Assembly (NCBI RefSeq): GCF_024713945.1
Contig: NC_134684.1
Coordinates: 2,399,001 to 2,463,000, forward strand
DNA: 64,000 nucleotides
Origin: Dermatophagoides farinae
Taxonomy: Eukaryota > Arthropoda > Arachnida > Sarcoptiformes > Pyroglyphidae
Direction: 5' to 3'
Shown here: positions 20,532 to 26,449 of the stretch, piece after piece
Layout: each line of letters begins with the position of its first letter
How positions within the stretch are numbered: position 1 is the first letter of the stretch
The notes under the pieces: model-generated
Database searches by the model: none
Told to the model about the DNA's origin: nothing
Seen by the model: the letters and a program-made list of their open reading frames with translations, nothing else
Translations under genes and position numbers: made by a program

Positions 20532-22265
20532 TCACAAATTGATTGGAACTGGTTTTTGTTTGTACGTTGGGTCAAGATCATAATTTCGACCATATAAAGC
20601 TAATGTGCTTAATTCAATAGCTTTACTTTCCGGATTGTCTTTGGCACCTAATTCAACGAAATGTTCAGGTTTATCCGGTACATTTACTTTCCAATATTTC
20701 CATTTATTTTCAGGATTAATGAGCTGATTTTTAGGACCAACGGCACTGGGATATACGGCAGTACTTTCACTAAATGCTCCTCTTAGTTTTGCGTAAACGA
20801 ATCGAGAATTAAGTTCTTGATTTGAACCAAATTGTGAACAATCTTTTTCCACTTTTCCAATGTTCCAACGTGATGATGGACAGACAACAACGGCACAAAT
20901 CTCTTCAGTCCAACGATAAGTACCTGGTCGCGTACGATTAGCCACCATTAAATAGTAACGTTCTTCGGGAGTAAAATATTCAAGCATATTTGCTAATAAT
21001 GGTACACGATCCACCCATGACTCCCGCGGTTGATCTTTCACAGCTAAACGGTATTCAATCTGGCAACAAACACCTTTATAGCAGATATGAAATTCAGAAT
21101 CTTTTGAAGATAATTCCACTAATGTTACATCCAAAAGATTCATGTTAAGATGATGGTATTTTACAGAATTTGGAATCGGAATCTGTTGAGGTACTTCAAT
21201 AATTTCGCTATCCAAAGGACAAACAGATTTATCCGTTTCTCGGGGCTTGATGGGAACATTTGCCAAAACTAAACGTTCAACAGAATCATCGTATAATGCT
21301 GTAGCTAGTGTTTGATGTGGTCCAACATAAATACCACTGCCACGTGAGCCCAGCTAAAAAATAAAAATTTAGAAACAATCAAACAGAGAAGACTTATTTT
21401 TATACCTCGACACGATGAATGTTTGAAGCTAATAATGTGACATTGTTACCAAAGGCCCATGCCATTTGATATTGACTAGAAGATAACATTGGGGCTTCAT
21501 CAAACCACCACGTCGGAAAAAGCATGGTATCAAATTTGTTTTGTTCTGCTAGAAAATGTCCGGGCGTCTTAAAGATCATGTCGAAACATATTTGCATACC
21601 AAGCCGTCCTAATTCTGTATCGATGACCAGTAATTCTGGTTTCGGTGGAATATTCATGGTCATCTCACCGAACAAATGCATTTTGTGATAACGTCCCAAG
21701 AGTTTACCTTGGCGATCGAACAAGACGGCCGTATTGAATAAAAATTTTTTATCAGCAGGGCAAGAATCTGATGTGTTGCTAATGCCTAATTCTTCGCATG
21801 ATTTTCGATCAATCAAATCTGCTACAACGAATATTTCATGTTTTTGAGCTAGACATGCTAACCGATTATACACAGACTTTGTTTCCAGTGTACATGCATT
21901 TGTTTCACCATCGGGAATATCCGAAGCGAATTCGTCAGCTTTTTCACGTGAAGCAATATTATAGATGAGACCATCTTCGGGAAAAACGATAATATCGGCA
22001 CCCTAAATACAAAATTAAAATTTTTAAAATTAATTAGTCAATTTTTTGAGAAAAATACTTGTTTTTTAGCTAAGGCAGCTGCGTCTTCATAGACTTTGAA
22101 ATTCAATTCTATTATCTTGGCGAAATCGGATAATTGGCGAACATTTGTTTGATGAACATGATCAAGAACGGCGGCACGAAAGCAACCTTCGGGTGCTTTT
22201 TTCGTTTCAATCACGATGAATGTCATCAACGATAACAATAACCAACATCTCAATGGTTGCATCAT
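20532..22265 (-). CDS. Vanin/biotinidase-family secreted amidohydrolase (pantetheinase-like)
   Basis: Vanins split pantetheine into pantothenate and cysteamine; biotinidase frees biotin from biocytin. Exons 22059-22265, 21406-22002 and 20532-21353, all phase 0, give 541 aa. A signal peptide (CWLLLSLMTFIVIE) starts the protein. The nitrilase-fold catalytic triad is complete: Glu78 in VFPEDG, Lys176 in GRYHKMHLF and Cys208 in LGMQICFDM, almost the same spacing as human VNN1. The C-terminal vanin domain, with FHICYKGVCCQIEYRL and ICAVVVCPSSRW, keeps paired cysteines typical of the family. No clear GPI-anchor signal is seen, so the enzyme is probably secreted. Sequence alone does not choose between pantetheinase and biotinidase activity. 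It is convergent with the gene on its left and divergent from the RCC1/BTB locus on its right. Confidence 0.92.
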
Positions 22266-22788
22266 GCTTGTAATTTTATTCGGCAATAATTATGGTTTCA
22301 AATGAGAAATTGACTTGATGAGCGATAGAACTAGATAATTTATTCATTCGTCCAGATTTATATATTATGTTTATTTATACAATTTTAAGTACATATTAGT
22401 GAAAAATATCTAAGAAAATTAATTAAATTAGATATGTTTCAAGTATCAAGAGGATGTACTGATTTTATCATTGGAAAAAAACCTCTTGAACTCGATTAAA
22501 ATAACGAAGTAATCAAAAAAAAAACGGATGATTTTTATTATTATTGATGCGCGCATGTCTTTGTTTTTCAAAACACGCAGAATTGTTTCCAAGCATTTTT
22601 TTTGCAATGTATTCTCATTTTACGAATACGTCCTTTATGAGGAATTCACTAGTGTTGCAATTTTTCCGTTCAAATGTTTCCTGCTCAAATTTTTTTTTCT
22701 CACACATTCACTTTTCGTTCTTTGTTTAATTTTGTTAAATTTGATTTCTTTCGTTAAAAAAAGGTTTTTTTTTGTAATTTTTTCAAAA
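22266..22788. other. Divergent promoter region between vanin-like gene and Gag-like/RCC1 locus
   Basis: About 520 bp separates the two start codons. From about 22530 the plus frame stays open into the next ORF for 87 codons, but its composition (Phe, Leu, Ser, Ile rich) suggests a T-rich 5' leader and not coding sequence. I see no TATA box or repeat of note. Confidence 0.5.
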
Positions 22789-23565
22789 ATGGATCGACGT
22801 TTACCACCATTAACTTGTGACAATTGGAATGAATGGAAAAAAGAATCTAAAATCATATTAAATCGTTTGTATTTATGGTCTATTGTCGATGATGATCAAC
22901 TTTCGGATAAACACAAAGCTTTGGATGATGCAATCGTCGAAATGATTCTATTTTCTATCGAAGATAAATCCTTGATGATTTCATTGGCAAAAAATTGTTC
23001 GTCATCAAATAATTTGTGGCAAAAATTATGCGAACATTTCGAATCCTCAGCAAGTGTTAATATTGAAACAAATGATGAAATCGAATCATCTAATTTTGCT
23101 GCTATACAGATCAAAAAGGATACTCACGATGTTCAAATACAATCATCATTGTTGGACTTATCCGGATCTCTACCCGATGATTTCGAAGAACTTTTTGCTC
23201 TTGTTCAACAATTAGAAATTAAAGTAATTGAAACTTTGTCTGAAATCAAAGATGAATCATTGGTCATCGAAAAAGGCATCAGAATTCGACAGCAATTTTT
23301 GGATTTCATTGGTGTTGTCGAAAATTTTTGTGTTCCTTGTGAAACAGAAACTATTATCACATGTGATTCTCCACGATCTTCGAATTTAATTAATGATGTT
23401 TCTGACTTTAAACCACGTGAAATTGAAACCATTGATGAAACTAAATGTAAATCGAAAAAGTCAAAACCAACAGTTTCTGAATGTGAAAATGAAATAACAT
23501 TCGAAAATATCACGACCTGTGAAAATCAAAATAATTTTTTGGATGATCAACATAACAAAAAGTAA
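22789..23565 (+). CDS. Copia-Gag-like (UBN2/DUF4219-type) ORF, first part of RCC1/BTB locus
   Basis: A 258-aa frame from a well-placed ATG (AAAATGG). Its first 90 residues have the layout of Ty1/Copia Gag N-termini: LTCDNWNEWKKE, LYLWSIVDDD, a conserved acidic Ala/Ile helix (DDAIVEMILFSIED), then NNLWQKLCEHFES. The remainder is acidic and has no CCHC zinc knuckle. No protease, integrase, reverse transcriptase or LTR is seen nearby, so it is not a working retrotransposon. It is best read as a captured or domesticated Gag-like region. It ends at TAA inside AAAAAGTAA, where the frame shifts by +1 into the RCC1/BTB frame. Both frames probably belong to one gene, joined either by a 94-nt intron or across a 1-base indel. 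The fusion is inference. Confidence 0.6.
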   Translation: MDRRLPPLTCDNWNEWKKESKIILNRLYLWSIVDDDQLSDKHKALDDAIVEMILFSIEDKSLMISLAKNCSSSNNLWQKLCEHFESSASVNIETNDEIESSNFAAIQIKKDTHDVQIQSSLLDLSGSLPDDFEELFALVQQLEIKVIETLSEIKDESLVIEKGIRIRQQFLDFIGVVENFCVPCETETIITCDSPRSSNLINDVSDFKPREIETIDETKCKSKKSKPTVSECENEITFENITTCENQNNFLDDQHNKK

Positions 23566-25060
23566 AGACGAAGAAGTTATTGATGAAATTTTGGTATGTT
23601 TAAAAGAACCTACTGCAAATGACACTGTAGTGGAAAATGACTCATCTTTTTTGAGACCTAATAACGAGAAAAATGATAATCTTCCCTGGTTAAAAACTAA
23701 CGATTTAAATCTATGGTCTCGTTTGTTGATTCTTGATCAGACATTTTTGTCAAAATTGGATAAATTTTATTGCAATTCTAGTGGTGAATATTGGCTTTTT
23801 GATGATGATGGCAAAATATTCCGTTATGGTCATCATGATCGAAATCGAGAAGATTTTACTGATATCCAATCACCAATATTAATCAATGAATTGAGTAATG
23901 AGCTTATCAAATCGATTGTCCCTTGCTTTAATTATAAGAGTACTTGGTCTCTGATTCTAACCCAAGATGGACAGCTCTATGCTATTGGCGATAATCAGTA
24001 TGGACAACTTGGCATTGGTAATACAGAATTTCAACATAGACCAGTTTTTGTTTCGGGAAATATTCGTAAAGTTTCTTGTGGTATATACCATGCCTTGGCG
24101 ATAACTAATGATGGAAAAGTGTTAAGTTCTGGCTCGAATCAATTTTTTCAAAACGGACACAAAATAAAAAGTCATGGTAAATTAACACTTAGCGAAATTG
24201 ATTCATTTCGAAATGATCGAGTCATGGATATCACTTGCACTATTAATGCTTCAATAATTATGAAAGAATTTCATGAAATATATCTGTTCGGTTCTTTTAA
24301 TCGAAACATTTTTTTTCCACCAAAACTCATCATTTTTGATTCATTCATAACAAGAATTGTTGGTGGCCGAGATGAATTTCTTGTTCTTTCCAATGAAATG
24401 AAACAAAATCATGATCGTACTAGTGAACAAGCTCATATCTATCAATCGAATAATGAATCAAAATTTATTAGTCACAAGATCAAATTTGATTTTTCGGAAT
24501 CTAAAATAATTGCTGTTTATCCTCAAATTTATTCCAGTAATTACGTATTTGTTACTGAGGATGGCTTATGCCACATCATCTGTTACCAGCAACCACGACA
24601 AATAATAACAACAAAATTTTCATCAGTACCCGATGTTTTTTGTTTGTTTCTTTATCCACAAACGGGATCAATTATTCGTTTACCAAAAGAGTTGACCCAG
24701 AATCTCGATCGTATTTCAACATTGAACAATCCAGGTGTGGCTGATATTATTTTTAAAATTCCAAATTCAAATGTATTGTATGCTGAACGTGAACGTTTAA
24801 GTGGACGTTCATTTTTTTGGCACAACTCATTCAATTGCCAATGGGCGAGCAAATATCCGGCCACTATTCATTTTAAATATTTGCCATTCTATCTTTATTT
24901 ACGTTTTGTTTATGAAATGCCCGATTTGAAAATGATCAATTTGTTGGATTTCATTGAAGAATTGTATGATTTGGGCAGAAAATTTGAAGATGGTGATTTT
25001 ATTCATTATCTTAATAATTTAGCCAATCGTAAAGCTAAAATCAATAATAAGCCAACTTAA
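23519..25060 (+). CDS. RCC1-repeat protein with BTB-like C-terminus (RCBTB-like)
   Basis: An open frame of about 510 codons, overlapping the end of the Gag-like frame. Its true start is likely upstream in that frame, since no good ATG begins it. RCC1 propeller blades are recognisable in the middle: SLILTQDGQLYAIGDNQYGQLGIGN, split here by the reader as TQDGQLYAIGDNQYG then QLGIGN, and CGIYHALAITNDGKVLSSGSN. The C-terminal 110 residues look like a divergent BTB domain: DIIFKIPNSNVLYAERERL, then FVYEMPDLKMINLLDFIEEL and LYDLGRKFEDGDF. RCBTB proteins use the BTB part to dimerise or bind cullin 3, and the propeller to bind partners. It is intronless, or has one intron near the overlap. AATAAA is at 25240-25245. 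Confidence 0.75.
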   Translation: MKIKIIFWMINITKSKDEEVIDEILVCLKEPTANDTVVENDSSFLRPNNEKNDNLPWLKTNDLNLWSRLLILDQTFLSKLDKFYCNSSGEYWLFDDDGKIFRYGHHDRNREDFTDIQSPILINELSNELIKSIVPCFNYKSTWSLILTQDGQLYAIGDNQYGQLGIGNTEFQHRPVFVSGNIRKVSCGIYHALAITNDGKVLSSGSNQFFQNGHKIKSHGKLTLSEIDSFRNDRVMDITCTINASIIMKEFHEIYLFGSFNRNIFFPPKLIIFDSFITRIVGGRDEFLVLSNEMKQNHDRTSEQAHIYQSNNESKFISHKIKFDFSESKIIAVYPQIYSSNYVFVTEDGLCHIICYQQPRQIITTKFSSVPDVFCLFLYPQTGSIIRLPKELTQNLDRISTLNNPGVADIIFKIPNSNVLYAERERLSGRSFFWHNSFNCQWASKYPATIHFKYLPFYLYLRFVYEMPDLKMINLLDFIEELYDLGRKFEDGDFIHYLNNLANRKAKINNKPT

Positions 25061-25277
25061 ATGTTAATTTTTTTTTCGATTTCCGAAAGAACCCTTTAAA
25101 TAATTTTGATGTTTCATTTTTTTTCCATTCAGATACATAATCTTTTTGTAAATCAAATTAATCGATAAAAATAATTTTTTCAAATATAATTTGTTTATTA
25201 ATGATAAGATATAATGATAATAATAATGAGATTTAATTGAATAAAGAATTATATAATTCACAATGGATTTTTTCTGT

Positions 25278-26119
25278 TCAATTCAATATGGTATGATTAT
25301 CGAAAATATTACGACGCTGTTCTTTTACTTGACGTTTCCATTTGTTTTGTGAATGACCAACACGATTCAATACACCGATTGGTCCGGCTGCCGTTATATT
25401 TACATCATCGGTTATACCACTAAATTTGAATGAAAAAAAAAATTGAATGGATTTCTCTAAAAAAAAATTATTAACAATACATACGATGATGATGATATTC
25501 GATGTCTAGCGGATTGACTATCCGAATCTCGTTGAGGAGGTTGTTGATGTTCTTGTTGTTGTGGTTGTTGTTGTTGTTGCGATCCATCCGATGGCTGTTG
25601 TTCATGTTCTTCTAATGAAACTTCTTCATTGAAATATTTATAACTGTTCCTTGATTGACCTGATTGAAATCGAATAGAATATAAATGAAAAATTTGTTGA
25701 TAATTGCAATATGAAAAATAGATACGTTTATGAATCCATGGATCAAGAATCATTAGAAACAGCATATAAATGACCAGAAAAGATATGACACCAATGATGA
25801 ATATGACAAAGAAACGAATAATGGATGTATCTCTTGATTCATATTTACATTCACAGCGTGGACAAAATTCTTTTGCTTTCGATTGAACATCGGATGATAA
25901 TTGTGGCAGAACAACGAAATCACAATTACATTGATTGGGAGCTACATTTCTAATGTATAATTTTCTTGTAGTACCTTTGGTTGCATTGCTTACAACACTA
26001 GGCACTGGACATATACATTTACATCGAACATCTTCATATTGGCCATCGACCGATCCAATGATCAACATAATAAATGGTAAACATGTTAAAAATAGACAGA
26101 AATTTACTTGATTTGCCAT
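25278..26119 (-). CDS. TMEM9: TMEM9 family lysosomal/endosomal membrane protein
   Basis: TMEM9 proteins are single-pass glycoproteins of late endosomes and lysosomes, linked to V-ATPase and CLC transporter regulation. Exons 25726-26119, 25485-25659 and 25278-25419 (711 nt, 236 aa) join in phase. A signal peptide (FCLFLTCLPFIMLIIG) is followed by the family hallmark EDVRCKCICPVP, the second Cys block CNCDFVV and FCPRCECKYESRDTS, one membrane helix (FFVIFIIGVISFLVIYMLFL), then LDPWIHKR. The cytosolic part has a Gln/Pro-rich insert. The last exon gives the conserved end: NKWKRQVKEQRRNIFDNHTILN, matched in two halves (NKWKRQVKEQRR and IFDNHTILN). The first intron (25660-25725) is 66 nt, has no in-frame stop and could be retained. 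The family call is firm. Confidence 0.93.
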
Positions 26120-26449
26120 TTTTTTTACAAGAAAAGTCTCAACAAAAACAACAGAATATTAGGTCATTTTTAAATTTAAGATTTTTATTCAAAAATGATC
26201 TTGAGTAGGAGTTTTTTAAAATATTGACATGGCAAAATTTGTCAAATCGCAAAAATTGATGGCAAAAAAAATGTAAACAAAAGACTGTTCAAATAGGACG
26301 TATGGAATTTAAAAATGACGCGCCAACAAATTGAAAAAAAATTCCTATGAATTAATCATTTATTTCAATACAAATATAGAAAAAGTTAAAAAAATTTCTG
26401 AAAAAACAATCTTCAATAAGTTATGATAAAATTTCAAAAAAAAAAAACA

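What the first reader, a model, noticed from the sequence alone, without database searches (positions are those of the whole stretch)
22789..25060. Copia-Gag-like region fused or coupled to an RCC1/BTB protein
Directly seen: one frame with the W-W, LW, NNLW-KL-EHFE layout of Ty1/Copia Gag (UBN2/DUF4219 type) ends exactly where a second frame begins, and the second frame has RCC1 repeats and a BTB-like end. No LTR, protease, integrase or reverse transcriptase is present. Known: Gag domains have been domesticated repeatedly in animals (for example Arc). Inference: a Gag capsid-type N-terminus has been captured by an RCBTB-like protein. I know of no such architecture, and the near absence of introns fits a retro-copied origin.
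Basis: partly seen in the sequence, partly recalled or inferred. Interest (0 to 1): 0.72.

Follow-up and report, generated by a model that had tools for sequence, protein, structure and literature searches.

The report
Copia capsid piece on RCC1-BTB gene
A house dust mite gene appears to have gained, at its front end, a piece of the shell protein of a Copia-type jumping gene, joined to an RCC1-BTB protein; whether it is made as one protein still needs RNA evidence.

Summary
The window lies in a 62,435,336-base assembly that matches published Dermatophagoides farinae. The Gag claim holds: residues 1-100 of the frame starting at ATG 22789 score above all 10,000 shuffles against a profile of the genome's own Copia-type Gags, and align at score 140 (best of 5,000 shuffles: 63) to a stand-alone short Gag on the same contig that passes Pfam's cut-off. 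Only the first capsid lobe is clear. The second frame has RCC1 repeats and a diverged BTB that Pfam misses but a paralogue profile finds. Paralogues examined lack the Gag start and are mostly long single frames too, so few introns do not show a retro-copy.

The join is the weak point: the frames differ by one base and overlap at 23498-23565. Splicing is possible but the in-phase candidates remove sequence that scores as coding, or have poor signals. One coding unit with a frame change near 23510-23566 fits best; its cause (assembly, allele, mutation, recoding) is untested, as are RNA and other mites. Inferred role: a capsid-binding adaptor, perhaps restricting Copia.

The parts
22789..23565 (+). 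Frame 1: Gag-like reading frame, 258 codons plus stop
   Evidence: all eight 90-nt blocks score as coding against an intron model; 0 of 20,000 Markov-1 sequences of the same composition stay open
22789..23073 (+). Capsid N-lobe-like domain (residues 1-95) of Copia-type Gag
   Evidence: groups with the short stand-alone Gag, support 92/79, not starred, both on long branches
23167..23277 (+). LP-block that may be a remnant of the second half of Gag
   Evidence: 5.3 bits, rank 42 of 5,002 targets (5,000 shuffles): suggestive only, and chosen after seeing the motif
23498..23565 (+). Overlap of frame 1 and frame 2; the preferred frame changes between about 23510 and 23566
   Evidence: holds a T6 run at 23535 and an A5 run at 23557
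23562..23655 (+). In-phase GT-AG candidate intron that starts at the end of frame 1 (94 nt): judged unlikely
   Evidence: GC 0.319; splice score 1.18; +14.3 bits as coding in frame 2
23567..23656 (+). Linker in frame 2, without counterpart in the paralogue starts seen
   Evidence: +14.3 bits coding against intron model; slightly negative in two windows against base composition; paralogue starts
23498..25060 (+). Frame 2: RCC1-BTB-like reading frame
23804..24295 (+). RCC1-repeat region: span of the best stretch of the RCC1-like (WD40_RLD) model
   Evidence: RCC1_2 59.1 bits and RCC1 54.2 bits over cut-off; WD40_RLD 84.4, below its cut-off of 150
24713..25024 (+). Diverged BTB-like domain
   Evidence: 21.8 bits against a profile of 16 RCC1-BTB paralogues, best of 2,000 shuffles 6.9; Pfam BTB not detected
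25240..25245 (+). AATAAA after the stop; the only other one on + between 22789 and 25260 is at 24163, inside frame 2
   Evidence: L074:4441 and L074:3364; over the whole locus this hexamer is no commoner than chance

Best explanation
A single mite gene in which a domesticated, truncated Copia-type Gag (capsid N-lobe, no nucleocapsid knuckle) forms the N-terminus of an RCC1-BTB protein. Shown: the Gag ancestry of the first ~95 residues, the RCC1 repeats, the BTB-like end, coding preference on both sides of the join, and the absence of the Gag part from the paralogue frames seen. Inferred: that both parts lie in one product, the frame change near 23510-23566 being an assembly or allelic length difference or recoding. 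Inferred mechanism: the capsid lobe binds capsid lobes (its own or those of Copia particles, as RTL8 does with PEG10) while the RCC1-BTB part supplies dimerisation and a CUL3-type ubiquitin-ligase or scaffold link, so the protein would act as an adaptor that recognises capsids. My odds: one gene with both parts about 0.7; capsid-binding adaptor about 0.3.
For: Gag. The short relative P0002 links this gene to the genome's Copia-type Gags. One unit: no space between the parts; frame 1 is the best of three frames in every 90-nt window starting 22789-23479, frame 2 in all but one (24559) of those starting 23509-24979; no AATAAA on + between 23565 and 24163; the only ATG in frame 2 ahead of the RCC1 part is at 23543, inside frame 1, in a context I judge weak (letters). 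Single match at DNA level, no LTR found. Precedents: RTL8, a truncated Gag-like protein, enters PEG10 particles and lowers their number (PMC11684626, abstract and passages); Ty1 p22, a truncated Gag, inhibits Ty1 (PMC7055915, passages).
Against: As assembled, a stop and a one-base frame change separate the parts. No RNA, second assembly or other mite was in reach. Pfam's Gag score is below cut-off; with the full-length Gag profile 2 of 5,000 shuffles of residues 1-100 scored above the 258-residue query. Against plain base composition several frame-2 windows score below zero, among them 23599-23719. One in-phase splice, 23447-23630, has a splice score of 4.25, within the range of my reference introns. 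The BTB is so diverged that CUL3 binding is doubtful. The structure prediction failed (mean pLDDT 39.6). Binding, expression and selection were not tested.
Confidence: 0.55

Rival explanations
1. The frame change is a real, fixed mutation: the gene was a fusion and now encodes only a 258-residue Gag-like protein, the RCC1-BTB part being a recent pseudogene.
For: Stop at 23563-23565 as assembled; 8 of 50 RCC1 loci on C7 have frames under 450 codons (my count), one of them split over two frames.
Against: Frame 2 stays open over 520 codons and scores as coding in 14 of 15 blocks.
Confidence: 0.15
2. Two separate, overlapping genes: a stand-alone domesticated Gag, and an RCC1-BTB gene that starts at ATG 23543.
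For: A stand-alone short Gag relative exists; an in-frame ATG lies in the overlap.
Against: The second gene's promoter would lie inside the first's coding region; ATG context weak by my judgement; no AATAAA between the parts; most paralogue frames start within some tens of residues of the RCC1 part, whereas this one would carry an extension of about 45 residues that begins inside frame 1.
Confidence: 0.12
3. The frames are joined by splicing (23562-23655, the short AT-rich 23519-23567, 23447-23630, or another of the in-phase candidates); this too would give one protein with both parts.
For: All join the frames in phase (8 candidates, one more); 23447-23630 has splice score 4.25, inside the 3.6-7.0 of 11 reference introns; 23519-23567 has GC 0.224 like true introns.
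Against: 23562-23655: splice score 1.18, GC 0.319 against 0.12-0.24, +14.3 bits as coding where 12 left-out introns reach at most +1.8. 23447-23630: 184 nt against 52-78, and would remove blocks scoring +12.8 and +14.6 as coding. 23519-23567: 49 nt, donor GTGAAA, no pyrimidine tract. The splice weights were hand-set and the reference introns picked by eye, so the comparison is partly circular.
Confidence: 0.12
4. Programmed +1 frameshifting of the kind Ty1 uses joins the two frames.
For: The change is +1, the direction Ty1 uses (PMC7055915, passage on +1 frameshifting).
Against: I recognised no known slippery site (recalled knowledge, no test); 16 of 33 Gag matches of this genome lie in single frames of 1,247-1,399 codons, which suggests Gag-Pol without a shift there.
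Confidence: 0.06
5. The Gag similarity is a chance resemblance of helical sequence.
For: Sub-threshold Pfam score; the full-length profile does not exceed all shuffles.
Against: Local score 140 against at most 63 in 5,000 shuffles with a protein that is Gag by Pfam and has a CCHC knuckle; N-half profile above all 10,000 shuffles.
Confidence: 0.02

Closest known systems
RTL8 (mammalian Gag-like gene that antagonises PEG10 particles)
   Same: Truncated Gag-derived protein resembling the capsid N-lobe, no zinc finger (PMC11684626, abstract and passages)
   Different: RTL8 comes from another element class (Ty3/gypsy; recalled), stands alone, and is not fused to RCC1-BTB
Ty1 p22 restriction factor
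   Same: Truncated Gag of the Ty1/Copia class that disturbs capsid assembly (PMC7055915, passages)
   Different: Made from the element itself and covering another part of Gag (C-terminal half; recalled); no host domain
SCAN-zinc finger proteins
   Same: SCAN domains are proposed to come from retrotransposon Gag (PMC11011659, passage) and serve as a module of multi-domain host proteins (recalled)
   Different: Vertebrate, gypsy-type, dimerising C-lobe (recalled); here a Copia-type N-lobe with RCC1-BTB in a mite
RCBTB1/RCBTB2 and IBtk
   Same: RCC1 repeats with BTB (architecture recalled); IBtk is a CUL3 substrate receptor (PMC4447969, search listing only)
   Different: No Gag part (recalled); the BTB here is diverged beyond Pfam recognition
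Arc / dArc1 and Drosophila Copia
   Same: Capsid proteins with host roles; Copia Gag assembles capsids (PMC11835246, passages)
   Different: Arc derives from another element class and has both lobes (recalled); Copia is a whole element

Membership tests
Copia-type Gag (Retrotran_gag_2 / DUF4219) | Sequence match to the family | tested here: met
   Directly below Pfam cut-off (19.5 of 27 bits); met through the own-genome profile and the relative P0002, 31 bits
Copia-type Gag (Retrotran_gag_2 / DUF4219) | Second half of the capsid region | tested here: inconclusive
   LP block 5.3 bits, rank 42 of 5,002
Copia-type Gag (Retrotran_gag_2 / DUF4219) | CCHC zinc knuckle | tested here: not met
   None in the 258 residues (read by eye); present in P0002
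Intact LTR retrotransposon | LTRs, protease, integrase, reverse transcriptase | tested here: not met
   No LTR-like repeat in 21300-26200; Pfam lists only Gag and RCC1-type families in the two frames; frames outside them were not scanned with Pfam
RCC1-BTB (RCBTB-like) protein | RCC1 repeats | tested here: met
RCC1-BTB (RCBTB-like) protein | BTB domain | tested here: inconclusive
   Paralogue profile 21.8 bits, shuffles at most 6.9; Pfam none
Domesticated Gag gene | Single-copy frame kept under selection across species | tested here: inconclusive
   Single DNA match, open far beyond chance; no other species in reach, so no selection test
Domesticated Gag gene | Expressed host transcript | not testable with these tools
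   No RNA data
Capsid restriction factor | Binds and inhibits element capsids | not testable with these tools
   Needs bench work

The most novel reading that the evidence does not exclude
A purpose-built capsid sensor: a Copia-derived capsid lobe as bait fused to a BTB ubiquitin-ligase adaptor, which tags Copia particles for destruction in an animal lineage that lost the piRNA pathway.
Probability: 0.13. Interest if true: 0.88.

Novelty: new variant of a known kind. Interest (0 to 1): 0.58.

Why it matters
The domesticated animal capsid genes I know of (recalled) come mostly from Ty3/gypsy-type elements; a human-genome survey whose capsid profiles included one for Pseudoviridae (Ty1/Copia) found none of that class (PMC11011659, passage). 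A Copia capsid lobe built into a multi-domain host protein would be a new source and a new architecture. Dust mites lack Piwi proteins and piRNAs (PMC5805368, abstract and section headings), so a protein-level control of Copia would be of special interest there, and binding and knock-down assays could test it.

Tried and rejected
Intron 23562-23655 as the explanation of the join: first favoured, then set aside on splice score, GC and coding score. On checking I also tell that 23447-23630 has a splice score in the range of my reference introns; I raised the splicing rival from 0.10 to 0.12 for that. Retro-copied origin from lack of introns: rejected, paralogues are mostly long single frames too. 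Structure of the 258-residue frame without alignment: mean pLDDT 39.6, so no fold search was run and its helices are not used as evidence. Solved structures: frame 1 gave nothing up to E 10; P0002 and the two-row alignment matched the Copia capsid chain 8vvw_A (E 0.0025 and 0.0026) mainly through the zinc knuckle, which the window gene lacks. Viral contigs and genome contigs gave no confirmed relative. Gag family PF03732: no match in this genome, but no control rang either, so this shows nothing. NCBIfam: nothing up to E 10. The third relative of P0002 that I looked at, at C3:6834884, is a degenerate Copia fragment by eye. Literature searches for such a fusion listed none (listings only: 5 of 5 shown, 7 of 7, 15 of 61, 10 of 37, 8 of 17); the library is open-access papers only.

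Rows dropped and choices made: of 33 Gag matches, 30 came with loci; 5 near-duplicates (similarity over 0.85), 5 fragments and P0002's own locus were left out of the 19-sequence profile; the tree left out 3 fragments. The first extraction read minus-strand loci on the wrong strand and was redone. The first coding score for the join used a wrong frame and was repeated. The 12 reference introns were picked by eye: 11 of the 31 candidates printed, plus one at 22003-22060 whose donor end is off by two bases. The LP-block test and the N-half profile were designed after seeing the alignment.

Full report
Source. The window is C8:2399001-2463000 of a 62,435,336-base, 22-contig assembly. The published chromosome-level assembly of the house dust mite Dermatophagoides farinae has 62.43 Mb and N50 7.12 Mb (PMC11074847, passages); contig C4 here has 7,117,990 bases, the N50 contig if contigs are numbered by length. 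I take the species as D. farinae (inference).

Observation. Frame 1 starts at ATG 22789 and stops at 23563-23565; frame 2 is open 23498-25060. They differ by +1 and overlap by 68 bases, so they do not meet exactly. Against an intron model, frame 1 scores as coding in all eight 90-nt blocks (+9.7 to +17.5 bits) and frame 2 in 14 of 15 (-0.0 to +23.4). Against plain base composition several frame-2 windows fall below zero, though frame 2 is the best of the three frames in all but one window starting 23509-24979. None of 20,000 Markov-1 sequences of the same composition stayed open over the length of frame 1.

The Gag part. Pfam gives Retrotran_gag_2 with 19.5 bits, E 7e-4, for residues 1-91 (17.4 bits for all 258), under the cut-off of 27. 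A genome search with frame 1 gave 3 matches: itself, a locus at C8:2122828 (E 6.4e-9, 31% identity) and one at E 1.12 that I take as chance and did not follow. The second locus is a 196-codon frame whose protein P0002 passes Pfam's cut-off for Retrotran_gag_2 (31 bits), touches DUF4219 below cut-off, and has a CCHC knuckle. P0002's best other match in the genome is the window gene (E 1.2e-10), followed by Copia-type Gags. A local alignment of residues 1-110 with P0002 scores 140; the best of 5,000 shuffles scores 63. A profile of the N-terminal halves of 19 Gags from this genome scores residues 1-100 at 27.0 bits; the best of 10,000 shuffles scores 19.1. The full-length profile is weaker: 12.4 bits for the 258 residues, with 2 of 5,000 shuffles of residues 1-100 above it, although the window frame (16.1 bits from its stop-to-stop form) was the best of 231 window frames. 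In a tree of 23 Gag N-halves the window gene groups with P0002, support 92/79, both on long branches. The second half of Gag is at most a remnant (5.3 bits, rank 42 of 5,002), and no zinc knuckle is present (by eye).

The RCC1-BTB part. RCC1 repeats are clear. Against a profile of 16 paralogues the C-terminus scores 21.8 bits (best of 2,000 shuffles 6.9) over the BTB position, while Pfam detects no BTB there; in paralogue L067 Pfam does (45.1 bits). The best paralogue by BLAST among 29 frames is 25% identical (L064). None of those 29 frames, at least one of which is not an RCC1 gene, shows the Gag start in its first 70 residues (by eye). Long single frames are usual in the family: 42 of 50 RCC1 loci on C7 have at least 450 codons (my count). 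Lack of introns is therefore no sign of a retro-copy.

The join. In-phase GT-AG joins were listed (8 candidates; one search adds 23447-23630). The one at the end of frame 1, 23562-23655, gives 725 residues but has GAG at the acceptor, a splice score of 1.18 (11 reference introns: 3.6-7.0), GC 0.319 (12 reference introns: 0.12-0.24), and scores +14.3 bits as coding in frame 2, where 12 left-out introns reach at most +1.8. The 184-nt join 23447-23630 scores 4.25, within the reference range, but would remove blocks that score +12.8 and +14.6 as coding. The 49-nt stretch 23519-23567 is AT-rich like an intron but has poor splice signals. The weights were hand-set and the reference introns picked by eye, so I call splicing unlikely, not excluded. 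On this evidence the coding preference changes frame without a gap between about 23510 and 23566. Possible causes are an assembly or allelic length difference, a real disabling mutation, or recoding; I could not tell them apart. A 52-codon frame-2 opening alone would occur by chance in 541 of 20,000 trials, which by itself is weak.

Context. The + strand has no AATAAA between 23565 and 24163; one lies at 25240, after the stop, though such hexamers are as frequent as chance. One DNA match, the locus itself, was found in the genome, and no LTR-like repeat in 21300-26200. Neighbours are a biotinidase/vanin-like and a TMEM9-like gene, both on the minus strand (named from recall of the sequences).

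Mechanism. A lone capsid N-lobe can join capsids of a relative and lower their number: RTL8 with PEG10 (PMC11684626, abstract and passages); a truncated Gag, p22, inhibits Ty1 (PMC7055915, passages). An RCC1-BTB-type protein can serve a CUL3 ligase (IBtk, PMC4447969, listing only). Together these suggest an adaptor that recognises capsids. It is inference; the diverged BTB argues for caution. Dust mites lack piRNAs (PMC5805368, abstract), which makes a protein-level Copia control attractive but proves nothing.

Novelty. Five literature searches (listings seen only) showed no Gag-RCC1/BTB fusion. I rate it a new variant of a known kind, domesticated Gag, with Copia origin and RCC1-BTB partner as the new features.

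Noticed in passing
G000:C7:532186-672717 (and C7 1.05, 1.99-2.00, 2.23, 2.89, 3.77 Mb); L068, L069, L073: A very large cluster of RCC1-BTB genes, most of them long single frames: one search gave 130 RCC1 matches in the genome (a lower bound, several per gene), 50 loci on C7 by my count. Several neighbouring units share one frame (858 to 1,997 codons).
   Followed up: partly
L066:3799-4254 (G000:C8:2122798-2123253): Stand-alone 151-residue Gag-like frame with capsid N-lobe and CCHC knuckle but no second lobe, between SLC35-like and ionotropic-receptor-like genes (names recalled); possibly a second domesticated Copia Gag.
   Followed up: partly
L064:3211-6516: RCC1-type matches near the start of a 1,116-codon frame; no other Pfam family listed for the long rest.
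   Followed up: no
G000:C7:627052-628139: An RCC1-BTB paralogue split between two frames (306 and 339 codons): another frame change in the same family.
   Followed up: no
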